Positions 18,072 through 36,153 of a stretch of 64,000 nt of DNA are shown piece by piece. The notes beneath the pieces were generated by a model that saw only the letters and a program-made list of their open reading frames with translations, did no database searches and was not told the origin of the DNA. Source of the stretch: Flavobacteriaceae bacterium (GTDB lineage: Bacteria > Bacteroidota > Bacteroidia > Flavobacteriales > Flavobacteriaceae); contig JANQNQ010000011.1 in assembly GCA_028279515.1 (NCBI GenBank), forward strand, positions 62,001 through 126,000, given 5' to 3'. Made by a program: the position numbers and the translations under genes. Within the stretch, counting starts at the first letter, position 1, and each line of letters opens with the position of its first letter.

Positions 18072-18941
18072 TTATTCTTTTTTACTCAGATACCTTCTTA
18101 GTTTTCCGCCTTTTACATTGTTGACATCAAATTCGATAACAAAGGCTTCTTCGTCAATGTCTTCGATCATTCGATGAATGCGTCTGATATCTATTCGATT
18201 AATGATCAGGTGAATGATCTCGCTGGTTTCAGTCAAGCCTTTTTTGCCGAACCCTTTGACACCTTTGTACACCGTGGCGCCTTGTCCCAATTGGTCAAGA
18301 AAGGATCGTTGGAGCTCTTCACTTTGCTTAGACACGATCATAAGTCCGACGTAATTCTCAAATCCTTGCAATGTAAAGTCAATGGCTTTGGCCGTAACCA
18401 GGTAGGTCAAAATTGAATACATAGCGATCTCAGGAGACAGTACCAATGCTGTAATGGCGAAGAGTATGATGTTAAAAACCAGAATGACCGACCCAATTGA
18501 GAAACCATATTTTTCATGGATGTGTATTCCTACCAGTTCTGACCCATCCAATACTGAACCATTTCTGATGGCCAGGCCGATACCGGTACCTAAGAAGATG
18601 CCGCCAAAGGTGGCAATGATCAACTTGTCATTGGTGATGGGCGTAAAGTTCTCGAAATAGATCATCAGAGAGAGTCCGATGATTGAGAGCAGAGATTTGA
18701 ATAAGATTCTTTTGGTAATGCTAAAGTAACCAAGTATAAAAAACGGAATCGAAATGATGGGAAGGATCCATGAGATGTTCAGGTCAAACAGTTTACTCAA
18801 TAAGATGGCAATACCTGTAACACCCCCATCCAGAAAGCCATTGGGCAATAAGAATGCTTTAAGACCAATACTTGCCAAGAAAATACCAAACCCAATTTGA
18901 AGGATCTCTGATAAGGAATTTTTCAAGGTGTTTGTGCTCAT
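18072..18941 (-). CDS. YitT family membrane protein
   Basis: 289 residues. Five to six membrane helices (residues about 10-170) carry the DUF161 pattern: GFGIFLASIGLKAFLLPNGFLDGGVTGIAILLSKL, then GIFLGTGIGLAIRNGSVLDGSELVG. They are followed by a cytoplasmic DUF2179 domain (residues about 200-289) with GQGATVYKGVKGFGKKGLTETSEIIHLIINRIDIRRIHRMI. The transported substrate of the family is not known. It is the first gene of a pair with the lipoprotein at 17352. Confidence 0.87.
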   Translation of the reverse strand: MSTNTLKNSLSEILQIGFGIFLASIGLKAFLLPNGFLDGGVTGIAILLSKLFDLNISWILPIISIPFFILGYFSITKRILFKSLLSIIGLSLMIYFENFTPITNDKLIIATFGGIFLGTGIGLAIRNGSVLDGSELVGIHIHEKYGFSIGSVILVFNIILFAITALVLSPEIAMYSILTYLVTAKAIDFTLQGFENYVGLMIVSKQSEELQRSFLDQLGQGATVYKGVKGFGKKGLTETSEIIHLIINRIDIRRIHRMIEDIDEEAFVIEFDVNNVKGGKLRRYLSKKE

Positions 18942-28230: not shown

Positions 28231-28917
28231 TCATTTACTATTGAAATAGACCGATCGCGTAACCAATTTATCATTGATAAAATCCTCAATGGCATCATAC
28301 TTTCGATTGTACTTTTGTAACTCATCAAAGTCAAAATTCTTAGGGATTCTCATCAGAATTTGGGGAAAGTGCTTGAAGGCTAGGTCGAGTACTTTTTCAC
28401 CGTTTGGAGAAAAATTATCAAGTTTAAATTTATTGATCTTCTCATAGCCTGGCCCTCCCCAAGGCGGATCTACGAAAATTGAGTCGGCTGATATGTTGGG
28501 CACTTCTTCAAAATAATCTCCATGTATAAATTGAATTTTGTCTTTTACGCCATAAATTTCTGCATTGTTCTTCGCCATCTCAAGCCGATCCTTGTCGATC
28601 TCGATCATATAGACCTTTCGGGCAAACTGGGCAAAAGCAATGGCATTTCCACCAACACACCCAAATCCATCAACAATGACTTGGTCTTTAAACCTCTTTG
28701 CATGATGAAGCGCATTTTCCTCAGGAGTTACCGAAAACAAGGCTGTCTCATCTATTTGAATGCCTTCGTCAAACTTTGAGAAGAGCTCGTACCTCTTGTC
28801 CCAGTATCTTTGTAGTTTTTCGCCAAAAGGGCAACGGTCTGTATTATTCATAGCTGCATCGCATGGATTGAAAGAATCAATATTATAAAAGGGACGGTTA
28901 CTTTCTAGATTAGACAC
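28231..28917 (-). CDS. TGS1-like RNA cap guanine-N2 methyltransferase homologue
   Basis: 228 residues. Residues 38-56 (YWDKRYELFSKFDEGIQID), LFSVTPEENA (60-69), VDGFGCVGGNAIAFA (82-96, SAM-binding) and VDPPWGGPGY (149-158) follow, in order and spacing, the catalytic domain of eukaryotic trimethylguanosine synthase TGS1, where the Trp of PPWGGP stacks on the m7G cap. Pfam Methyltransf_15 (PF09445) includes bacterial members. Bacteria lack such caps, so the substrate is unknown; a guanine in another RNA or a modified nucleotide is possible. It is cytoplasmic and appears complete. Nothing nearby suggests a partner. Confidence 0.82.
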   Translation of the reverse strand: MSNLESNRPFYNIDSFNPCDAAMNNTDRCPFGEKLQRYWDKRYELFSKFDEGIQIDETALFSVTPEENALHHAKRFKDQVIVDGFGCVGGNAIAFAQFARKVYMIEIDKDRLEMAKNNAEIYGVKDKIQFIHGDYFEEVPNISADSIFVDPPWGGPGYEKINKFKLDNFSPNGEKVLDLAFKHFPQILMRIPKNFDFDELQKYNRKYDAIEDFINDKLVTRSVYFNSK

Positions 28918-33937: not shown

Positions 33938-35317
33938 TTACCTGCTGCCCAATTCTCTCATGATTTCACCAAAGGTATTCCTGATTTCATTTTGTTTTGT
34001 GTGACGGCCGTTCTCGACTATCAATCTGCCATGAGAAATGGTTGCCTTTTGCATTGCGCTATCGGAAGCATAGACAATGGTAGATGCCAAGCTTTTGTCA
34101 CTGCAGCTCACCAATAGGGGATGGGTGCCATCAAGAATACATGCATTGAAAGGCGCTCCGATTTTAAAATATTCGTGCTCAAAATTGTTCATGGCCTTTC
34201 TACCTGCAATGGTTGCCATTTCGAGTGCGTAGGTTCCACCGTCGGCTTGTTTTGGAGAGAAATAAGTATTTCGTTTATGAGTGATCAGTCGTTGTCCGTA
34301 GTCCAAAATTCGCAATTCTTCAAGCGGATTTAACCCAATGTGACTGTCAGTTCCGATGCTCCATTTACCGCCTTCTTCTTGGTATTTTCTGAGCGGAAAG
34401 AGTCCGTCGCCTAAGTTTCCTTCTGTGCTCGGGCAGATAACTACGTTCGCCCCACTTTTGGCAATACCCACAGTTTCTTCATCTGTTAAGTGCGTAGCGT
34501 GGACCAAGTGGGATCTTTCATTCAAAGCTACATTGTCTAATAGCCATTCTACGGGCCTTTTTCCTAAATAGGCGATAGAATCTTCTATTTCTTTTAGTTG
34601 TTCTGAAACGTGTATGTGAAACGGAATGTCTTGTGGTCCCGATTTGGCGACTTCGGCTATATCGGTTGGTTCGACACCCCGCATCGAGTGGATCCCAATG
34701 GCGATGTTGGCCTGCTCGTAATGGTTGCAAGCTGCTTTACTCGCCTCCAGTAATTTTAAGTATTCGTCTATGGTAGCAGAGATGAATCTTCTTTGTCTGT
34801 CATTTGGCGGCAGTCCGAAGCCTCCTTTTTGATAGAATATTGGGCACAGTGTGATACCGATTCCGGCGGATTTGGCAGCTGCGACCAATCGACTTCCCAT
34901 CTCGGCAAGGTTGTCATAGGGTTTTCCGTCTTTGTCATGATGCACGTAATGAAATTCGGCTACATTGGTATATCCATGACGTGCCATTTCAGAATACAGC
35001 ATGGTGGCAATCGCTTCCATTTGATCCGGATTCATGCTCAAAGCCAATTGATACATGGCTTCGCGCCAGCCCCAAAAGTCATCGGGATTTTCGGTGCCTT
35101 CGTGCCTTTCCGCTAGGCCAGCCATTGCATATTGAAACGCATGCGAATGTGCATTTTGAAATCCAGGGATGGCGATGGAATGTTCACCAAAGAAAGACGG
35201 GTCTTGATTTTCTGAAGTAGAAATATCAACGATGTTTCCTTTGTCATCTACCGTTATGCTAGCATTTGTGAGCCAGCCTGAGTTTTGTAATAGTTTTTTG
35301 AATTTATATGTTTTCAT
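33938..35317 (-). CDS. hutF: Formimidoylglutamate deiminase
   Basis: 459 residues, amidohydrolase superfamily. It converts N-formimidoyl-L-glutamate to N-formyl-L-glutamate plus ammonia. Motifs: PGFQNAHSHAFQ (His ligands, residues 57 and 59), the HutF-type WGWREAMYQLA, HIHVSEQLKEIE (His and Glu, metal and substrate), HATHL and GTDSHIGLN near the C-terminal part. Length and motifs match HutF. It follows hutG after 29 bases, and together they give the last two steps of the five-step histidine pathway (formimidoyl- to formyl-glutamate to glutamate). hutH, hutU and hutI are not in this window. Confidence 0.9.
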   Translation of the reverse strand: MKTYKFKKLLQNSGWLTNASITVDDKGNIVDISTSENQDPSFFGEHSIAIPGFQNAHSHAFQYAMAGLAERHEGTENPDDFWGWREAMYQLALSMNPDQMEAIATMLYSEMARHGYTNVAEFHYVHHDKDGKPYDNLAEMGSRLVAAAKSAGIGITLCPIFYQKGGFGLPPNDRQRRFISATIDEYLKLLEASKAACNHYEQANIAIGIHSMRGVEPTDIAEVAKSGPQDIPFHIHVSEQLKEIEDSIAYLGKRPVEWLLDNVALNERSHLVHATHLTDEETVGIAKSGANVVICPSTEGNLGDGLFPLRKYQEEGGKWSIGTDSHIGLNPLEELRILDYGQRLITHKRNTYFSPKQADGGTYALEMATIAGRKAMNNFEHEYFKIGAPFNACILDGTHPLLVSCSDKSLASTIVYASDSAMQKATISHGRLIVENGRHTKQNEIRNTFGEIMRELGSR

Positions 35318-35346
35318 TACGAGAATTAGCTATTGAAACGTTTAAA

Positions 35347-36153
35347 TTATAGTACGTTCATGGTGTCAATTAAATCGAGAATCGTCTTCCTCAGAATATC
35401 TTTTACGTCTGAAGCACGCTCTTTATTGTAGGTAAGCTCATTATCATCCATGTACAAGATCTTGTTCATTTCTAGCTGTAATGCATGGACATCATTCCCA
35501 GGTTTACCAAAATAACGGGTGATGTGTCCGCCTTTGAATGGCGAATTGTGATTTACTCCGTACACTCCTGATCTAAGATTGCCTAAAGCCGAGTTGATAA
35601 GGGCCGGATGTGCCGTTTTTTCATCGTTGTTACCAAGGATCATATCTGGGAACACCTCTTTTTGAATGGTGCTGACCTTATGCCGAATGGAATGCGCATC
35701 CCAGAGAAGTACCTTGCCAAATTGTTTTTTGCGTTCTTCGAGTAGTGCTTCGATCTTCCGATAATACGGCCAATAATAGGTGTCCAATCGCCGTTGTTTT
35801 TCGGCCACATCGGGTTCAAGATCTTTTGATTTATAGATATCGTTTCCGAAGAAATCAGTGGTCGGCGTACAGGTGGTGATAAGCCTTCCATCAGTATATA
35901 AAGGAACACTTTCTGGGTCTCTGTTCAGGTCAATCACCCATCTGCTTAAGTTGGCCTTGATGACCGTGATGCCCAGTTCTGGTGCAAAATCATAGAGTTT
36001 ATGGACAAACCAATCTGTATCGTCTACCAAATTTCGCATTCGTTTCTTGTAATGCTTTTTGATCTCGGAAGGAAAGCCTGTTCCAGCATGTGGAACGCTG
36101 ATCACAATAGGTGCGAGGGGAGTGGTTGGTTCTTTAAGGTTGAATAAATCCAT
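35347..36153 (-). CDS. hutG: N-formylglutamate amidohydrolase
   Basis: 268 residues. It removes the formyl group from N-formylglutamate to give glutamate and formate. The family pattern is clear: PIVISVPHAGTGFP near the N-terminus (His metal ligand), VDDTDWFV, WVIDLNRDPES, WDAHSIRH (metal ligands) and GVNHNSPFKGGHITRYFG with a further histidine. It is upstream of hutF in the same operon and its product chemistry fits. It is the FGase-type HutG, not the arginase-like formimidoylglutamase. Confidence 0.9.
   Translation of the reverse strand: MDLFNLKEPTTPLAPIVISVPHAGTGFPSEIKKHYKKRMRNLVDDTDWFVHKLYDFAPELGITVIKANLSRWVIDLNRDPESVPLYTDGRLITTCTPTTDFFGNDIYKSKDLEPDVAEKQRRLDTYYWPYYRKIEALLEERKKQFGKVLLWDAHSIRHKVSTIQKEVFPDMILGNNDEKTAHPALINSALGNLRSGVYGVNHNSPFKGGHITRYFGKPGNDVHALQLEMNKILYMDDNELTYNKERASDVKDILRKTILDLIDTMNVL

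What the first reader, a model, noticed from the sequence alone, without database searches (positions are those of the whole stretch)
28231..28917. Bacterial protein with the full catalytic core of eukaryotic cap trimethylase TGS1
The blocks Y-W-x-x-R-Y-x-L-F-S-x-F-D-x-G-I, F-S-V-T-P-E, V-D-x-F-x-x-V-G-G-N and P-P-W-G-G-P occur in the order and spacing of TGS1, including the Trp that stacks on the m7G cap in the human enzyme. Bacteria have no m7G caps, so the protein must act on another guanine, perhaps in rRNA, snRNA-like RNA or a modified nucleotide. PF09445 is the family I would name.
Basis: partly seen in the sequence, partly recalled or inferred. Interest (0 to 1): 0.75.

Follow-up and report, generated by a model that had tools for sequence, protein, structure and literature searches.

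The report
Bacterial relative of cap methylase TGS1
A bacterium carries a small, intact enzyme that closely resembles the human enzyme adding extra methyl groups to RNA caps, and the same kind of gene is scattered thinly over unrelated bacteria, so it could show whether bacteria decorate guanine caps or guanine nucleotides the way our cells do.

Summary
On the minus strand at 28231-28917 (likelier start ATG 28851, 206 aa) lies a PF09445 protein (3.9e-30) about 42% identical to human TGS1 whose predicted fold matches TGS1 far above anything else. Trp766, Ser671, Asp696, Asn731 and Tyr771 are kept, Lys646 and Arg807 conservatively swapped. I found twelve intact relatives, all D-P-x-W, in Patescibacteria, Saccharimonadia, a 'Deltaproteobacteria' MAG and Proteobacteria including Legionellaceae. 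In two genomes it follows a new zinc-ribbon gene and a Nudix hydrolase gene; all 7 Legionellaceae genomes with it also hold the zinc-ribbon gene, which is in 16 of 143. 'Bacteria have no m7G caps' is too strong: E. coli RNA carries m7Gp4Gm. Best reading: a bacterial TGS1-family N2-guanine methyltransferase, probably acting on a 5'-terminal or free guanine nucleotide. Substrate and direction of transfer are open.

The parts
28231..28851 (-). TGS1-like (PF09445) methyltransferase gene, preferred ATG start, 206 aa plus stop (protein P0002)
28822..28833 (-). N-terminal C-P-F-G, signature [CS]P[FLY]G of the bacterial branch
   Evidence: 13 of 13 rows fit the pattern
28759..28806 (-). YWDKRYELFSKFDEGI block (N-terminal substrate-binding subdomain of TGS1)
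28720..28737 (-). FSVTPE, motif X; Ser40 = human Ser671, which sandwiches m7G
28645..28674 (-). VDGFGCVGGN, motif I (AdoMet site; Asp61 = human Asp696)
28450..28470 (-). DPPWGGP, motif IV; Asp128 = human Ser763, Trp131 = human Trp766 (m7G stacking)

Best explanation
It is a bacterial branch of the TGS1 (cap guanine-N2 methyltransferase) family. The enzyme binds AdoMet in a class I Rossmann fold, stacks a guanine base between Trp131 and Ser40 and transfers a methyl group to the guanine N2, with Asp128 of D-P-P-W standing where human TGS1 has Ser763. The most likely acceptor is a 5'-terminal or free guanine nucleotide, probably already N7-methylated: a methylated Np4N-type RNA cap, or an m7G nucleotide. 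The reason is that the base-stacking pair is kept and, in the window protein, both phosphate-contact positions keep a basic residue (Arg15 for Lys646, Lys171 for Arg807). The gene is a patchily distributed, laterally moving accessory gene; in a gammaproteobacterial sub-branch it is linked to a Nudix hydrolase and a new zinc-ribbon protein. Shown: homology, fold match, conserved residues, rarity, gene linkage, purifying selection in one sub-branch. Inferred: N2-guanine chemistry, the acceptor, lateral movement, the pathway.
For: PF09445 3.9e-30, and 13 of 13 bacterial members match PF09445. Human TGS1 3e-43; with the 7-row bacterial profile 3e-57 against 9.5e-10 for the best non-TGS1 chain and 0.0014 for 2ift (listed as 'Putative methylase HI0767'; I recall it as an RsmD protein). 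AlphaFold model mean pLDDT 80.3: Foldseek 3gdh 3.6e-22 against 4.5e-9 for the best other chain; VIA Z 24.7 for 3gdh_C against 16.7 for the best non-TGS1 entry. The tree puts the bacterial rows and human TGS1 together, 97/97, against four Patescibacteria outgroup rows. Pocket residues over 13 bacterial rows: W766 13/13, D696 13/13, N731 13/13, S671 kept as Ser in 6 and Thr in 7, S763 replaced by Asp in 13/13. In papers: m7G stacked between W766 and S671 (PMC3278928, section 67 and legend passages); K646 and R807 contact the alpha and beta phosphates and the W766 mutant gave no product (PMC4319546, passages); yeast and Giardia Tgs1 accept m7GTP and m7GDP (PMC3278928, passage). Nudix plus zinc-ribbon linkage. 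dN/dS 0.06-0.15 over six pairs of four Legionella-group genes.
Against: No activity is shown. Asp for Ser763 in 13 of 13, and loss of basic residues at 646 and 807 in several members, mean the acceptor may differ from m7G caps, at least in those. The window protein lacks the Glu equivalent to E667 that the other 12 keep. In the model the N-terminal region (1-12, 21-39) has pLDDT under 50, so half of the cap pocket is not tested structurally. The window genome lacks the zinc-ribbon partner and its gene has no obvious operon partner.
Confidence: 0.42

Rival explanations
1. The enzyme makes m2G (or m2,7G) at an internal guanine of rRNA or tRNA; the TGS1-like pocket simply holds a flipped-out guanine, as other N2-guanine methyltransferases do.
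For: The motif IV change from S-P-P-W to D-P-x-W (13 of 13) moves towards the (D/N)-P-P-(F/Y) of RNA base methyltransferases (recalled). Basic residues that hold the cap phosphates are lost in several members. Structural neighbours after TGS1 include the tRNA m2G enzymes Trm11 and Trm14.
Against: These neighbours are far weaker than TGS1 (Z 16.2 or less against 24.7). The protein has no extra RNA-binding domain (206 aa). A patchy accessory gene is unusual for a housekeeping rRNA or tRNA mark.
Confidence: 0.27
2. The enzyme modifies guanine nucleotides of the pool, or guanine in DNA, within a nucleobase-modification pathway; the Nudix hydrolase removes unwanted or modified triphosphates.
For: In two genomes the gene follows zinc-ribbon and Nudix genes that overlap or nearly touch. 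In Legionellaceae the zinc-ribbon gene is in 16 of 143 genomes, including all 7 that have the TGS1-like gene. A homologue of the zinc-ribbon gene on an Azospirillum plasmid overlaps a gene with Pfam Nmad2, 'nucleotide modification associated domain 2', 7e-8. PADLOC mad2 matches the methyltransferase part at 2e-16 over 115 residues.
Against: The window genome and the five other hosts outside the Legionella-like branch lack the zinc-ribbon gene (0 of 6: G000, G450, G451, G453, G455, G876). The mad2 match covers only the common Rossmann part (283-385 of 492) and is weaker than PF09445. The window neighbourhood holds no defence or DNA-modification genes among those scanned.
Confidence: 0.17
3. The gene came from a eukaryote and its product acts on host RNA as a secreted effector.
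For: The window protein is nearer to human TGS1 (about 42%; 40% in Foldseek) than to giant-virus homologues (up to 29% in the best five). Legionellaceae, which live in amoebae (recalled), carry it.
Against: The bacterial rows share features that human TGS1 lacks ([CS]P[FLY]G, Asp at 763). Hosts include groundwater bacteria and Patescibacteria with no known eukaryotic host in their titles. The four weaker Patescibacteria relatives also have Asp-Pro in motif IV (4 of 4), so Asp may be the older state. No secretion signal was tested.
Confidence: 0.06

Closest known systems
Human TGS1 catalytic domain (PDB 3gdh, 3egi), PF09445
   Same: Order and spacing of all blocks, fold, W766, S671, D696, N731, Y771; about 42% identity
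   Different: S763 is Asp; K646 and R807 are Arg and Lys; E667 is Thr; no long N-terminal region; no eukaryotic m7Gppp cap or Sm/SMN partners in the host
Cap guanine-N2 methyltransferases of giant viruses (e.g. Megaviridae sample A0A5J6VKP4) and Giardia Tgs2
   Same: Same family by fold, E 1.1e-13 for the Megaviridae row; a free-standing small enzyme; Giardia Tgs2 makes only m2,7G (PMC3278928 passage)
   Different: Giant-virus rows are 18-29% identical in the best five, more distant than human TGS1; Giardia Tgs2 was not compared by sequence here
RsmD / RlmG / Trm11 / Trm14 N2-guanine methyltransferases
   Same: Class I fold, D/N-P-P motif (recalled), probably the same chemistry
   Different: Much weaker by profile (Trm14 1.2e-6; 2ift 0.0014) and by fold; no TGS1-type N-terminal block

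Membership tests
TGS1 / PF09445 RNA cap guanine-N2 methyltransferase | PF09445 match above gathering score | tested here: met
   105 bits against 22; 13 of 13 bacterial members match at E 0.001 or better
[quoted passage not shown]
TGS1 / PF09445 RNA cap guanine-N2 methyltransferase | m7G-stacking Trp766 and Ser671 | tested here: met
   Trp131 and Ser40 align; by alignment only, since the N-terminal part of the model has low confidence
TGS1 / PF09445 RNA cap guanine-N2 methyltransferase | Motif IV Ser763 (S-P-P-W) of TGS1 proper | tested here: not met
   Asp in 13 of 13 bacterial rows; so filed as a branch of the PF09445 family, not as a TGS1 orthologue
TGS1 / PF09445 RNA cap guanine-N2 methyltransferase | Phosphate contacts Lys646 and Arg807 | tested here: inconclusive
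   Arg15 and Lys171 in the window protein (conservative); Lys or Arg in 7 of 13 and 5 of 13 rows
TGS1 / PF09445 RNA cap guanine-N2 methyltransferase | Fold nearest to 3gdh | tested here: met
   Foldseek 3.6e-22 and VIA Z 24.7, well above all other entries listed
TGS1 / PF09445 RNA cap guanine-N2 methyltransferase | Makes m2,7G or m2,2,7G from m7G nucleotides or caps | not testable with these tools
   needs enzymology
RsmD-type bacterial rRNA N2-guanine methyltransferase | Match to TIGR00095 (RsmD) above cut-off | tested here: not met
   16.1 bits against a cut-off of 117.5
MADS defence protein Mad2 | Full-length match to PADLOC mad2 | tested here: not met
   only 283-385 of 492 positions, 57.9 bits

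The most novel reading that the evidence does not exclude
Some bacteria have their own cap hypermethylation: a TGS1-family enzyme adds N2-methyl groups to m7G-type nucleotide caps (such as m7Gp4Gm) or m7G nucleotides, and in one branch it is paired with a Nudix hydrolase and a new zinc-ribbon protein that read or remove the mark.
Probability: 0.2. Interest if true: 0.88.

Novelty: new variant of a known kind. Interest (0 to 1): 0.58.

Why it matters
Cap trimethylation is treated as a eukaryotic and giant-virus trait, and the enzymes that methylate bacterial Np4N caps were not named in the passages I read of the paper that found them. A bacterial TGS1 branch gives a concrete enzyme to test for that role, and a sequence set with which to ask where eukaryotic TGS1 came from. 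The Nudix/zinc-ribbon linkage gives an independent handle on the substrate.

Tried and rejected
Viral origin: six viral-contig scans gave no relative (with 25, 26, 27, 29, 42). tblastn of the window protein found nothing in the plasmid or phage collections. A plasmid search with the L. erythra protein gave one weak partial hit, 39% of the query in Nonomuraea.

Contamination: unlikely. The gene lies inside a 278 kb contig of a genome 99.08% complete with 0.08% contamination, is one uninterrupted frame, and its GC is 39.5% against 40.8% for the window.

Defence island or prophage: the genes scanned around it are ordinary chromosomal ones (alkaline phosphatase, AraC-type regulator, beta-lactamase fold, LysM, SDR, amidohydrolase, N-formylglutamate amidohydrolase), with no tRNA between 20000 and 38000.

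The zinc-ribbon partner (L017 copy) has no match in Pfam, NCBIfam, PADLOC or PHROGs; the L042 copy has one sub-cut-off Pfam match (TackOD1, 17 bits against 32). Its profile finds nothing in the PDB below E 0.5, it is absent from the phage collection, and its single-sequence model is useless (pLDDT 34).

Tree: only one genuine eukaryotic sequence, and a long L047 outgroup branch for which the program warned. Ancestry is left open. I made no tree with RsmD or RlmG rows; that alternative rests on profile and fold scores only.

Literature: the searches listed no paper on a bacterial TGS1-type enzyme (listings only); the library holds open-licence papers only, and the TGS1 structure and mutagenesis papers I tried were not held.

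Full report
Observation. The ORF at 28231-28917 is on the minus strand and encodes 228 aa from a GTG, or 206 aa from the ATG at 28851. I prefer the ATG because most homologues start within about 11 residues of a shared [CS]P[FLY]G motif. PF09445 scores 105 bits against a cut-off of 22 (E 3.9e-30). The best PDB hits are the two human TGS1 entries, 3e-43 and 1.6e-38, and the next is 3.1e-5. Against NCBIfam nothing reaches its cut-off in the 25 rows shown of 36; RsmD (TIGR00095) has 16.1 bits against 117.5.

Structure. AlphaFold with seven sequences gave mean pLDDT 80.3 and pTM 0.79, with residues 1-12 and 21-39 under 50. Foldseek ranks six TGS1 chains first (3.6e-22 to 9.9e-18), then 4.5e-9. VIA-align gives Z 24.7 (rmsd 2.7 over 185 residues) for 3gdh_C and 21.9 for 3egi_D, then 16.7 for a CbiT homologue. 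Among viral predicted structures the best is a Megaviridae cap guanine-N2 methyltransferase at 1.1e-13 and 24% identity.

Pocket. In published human TGS1, m7G lies between Trp766 and Ser671 (PMC3278928, section 67 and figure legends), Lys646 and Arg807 touch the alpha and beta phosphates, and the Trp766 mutant has no detected product (PMC4319546, passages). In the alignment of 13 intact bacterial proteins with human TGS1, Trp766 is kept in 13 of 13, Asp696 in 13 of 13 and Asn731 in 13 of 13. Ser671 is Ser in 6 and Thr in 7. Ser763 is Asp in 13 of 13. Lys646 is Lys or Arg in 7 of 13 and Arg807 is Lys or Arg in 5 of 13; the window protein has Arg and Lys there. E667 is Glu in 12 of 13 and Thr in the window protein. 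The window protein is one of the more TGS1-like members (42% to human, against 26-44% over all 13), while many Legionella-group members have drifted in the phosphate site.

Distribution. With the window protein, only the own genome matched among 60 relatives. With PF09445 at E 1e-14, 1 of 395 genomes of the phylum matched. With the bacterial profile A3: 1 of 249 in the family; 7 of 143 in the family of the L. erythra genome, one of them broken by stops; 5 of 379 in the phylum of the Patescibacteria genome, of which 2 are strong and 3 hold only distant relatives; 1 of 46, 1 of 36 and 1 of 249 around the other three centres tried, each being the centre itself. The scan of genome contigs gave 6 relatives out of 77 pattern matches: Patescibacteria, 'Deltaproteobacteria', Legionella erythra, Saccharimonadia, a Gammaproteobacteria MAG and an uncultured proteobacterium. 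That scan used two narrow patterns, so it is a lower bound. The pattern is that of a rare, laterally moving gene (inference).

Tree. The 13 bacterial rows plus human TGS1 are separated from four distant Patescibacteria methyltransferases with 97/97 support. Inside, the branching of human TGS1 among the early bacterial rows is unresolved, and a single bacterial clade is not rejected (p-AU 0.397). The program warned of a long outgroup branch. So 'ancestral or acquired' stays open.

Partners. In the Gammaproteobacteria MAG (L048) and in one Legionellaceae genome (L042) the gene follows a 302-aa duplicated zinc-ribbon protein with no Pfam family above cut-off and a Nudix hydrolase (PF00293, 7.6e-13 and 7.1e-14); the genes overlap or lie a few bases apart. 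In the broken copy (G515) remains of the zinc-ribbon gene stand directly in front. In Legionellaceae the zinc-ribbon gene is in 16 of 143 genomes, including all 7 with the TGS1-like gene, though in the other genomes of those seven it lies elsewhere in the genome. The chance of this overlap is 5e-8 if genomes were independent and about 5e-4 after my rough collapse to three lineages. The Nudix gene sits beside the zinc-ribbon gene in 14 of 14 further loci examined, so the pair is the stable unit and the TGS1-like gene an optional third. On an Azospirillum plasmid the gene after a 38% identical zinc-ribbon homologue has an Nmad2 domain (7e-8). Of 14 genomes with the TGS1-like gene, 8 have a zinc-ribbon match and 6 do not (G000, the window's own, and G450, G451, G453, G455, G876). 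The partner evidence therefore bears on one branch of the family, not directly on the window gene.

Selection. Six pairwise comparisons of four Legionella-group genes give dN/dS 0.06-0.15, so the protein is kept for a function there. No close relative of the window gene is in the data for the same test.

Mechanism. The fold, AdoMet motif and base-stacking residues argue for guanine-N2 methylation (inference from TGS1). The premise that bacteria have no m7G caps does not hold: m7Gp4Gm was identified on E. coli RNA and is more abundant in stationary phase; its methylation protects from RppH but not from ApaH (PMC7044304, passages). TGS1 enzymes of yeasts and Giardia accept m7GTP and m7GDP (PMC3278928, passage). 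A 5'-terminal or free m7G-type nucleotide is therefore my first choice, with internal RNA guanine second and pool or DNA guanine third. None is shown.

Noticed in passing
L048:6615-7523 (same gene L017:6679-7584), L042:8922-9833: A duplicated zinc-ribbon protein of about 302 aa with invariant PGG..WG, H-x-H-A-R and CxxC pairs, with no family above cut-off in the libraries tried; beside a Nudix gene in 14 of 14 further Legionellaceae loci examined.
   Followed up: partly
L077:4821-6514 (Azospirillum argentinense plasmid p3): A 38% identical homologue of the zinc-ribbon protein overlaps a gene with a nucleotide modification associated domain (Nmad2), which hints at a modified-nucleotide setting.
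   Followed up: partly
L045:7941-8546, L046:7361-7984 and 18230-18853: A separate Patescibacteria methyltransferase group distantly related to the TGS1-like branch, with D-P-D-W or D-P-G-W in motif IV; two copies lie about 10 kb apart in one genome.
   Followed up: partly
L043 (G515): A decayed copy of the zinc-ribbon and TGS1-like genes with stops; no Nudix gene was seen between them.
   Followed up: no
window 33938-36153: Amidohydrolase and N-formylglutamate amidohydrolase genes side by side, as in histidine degradation.
   Followed up: no
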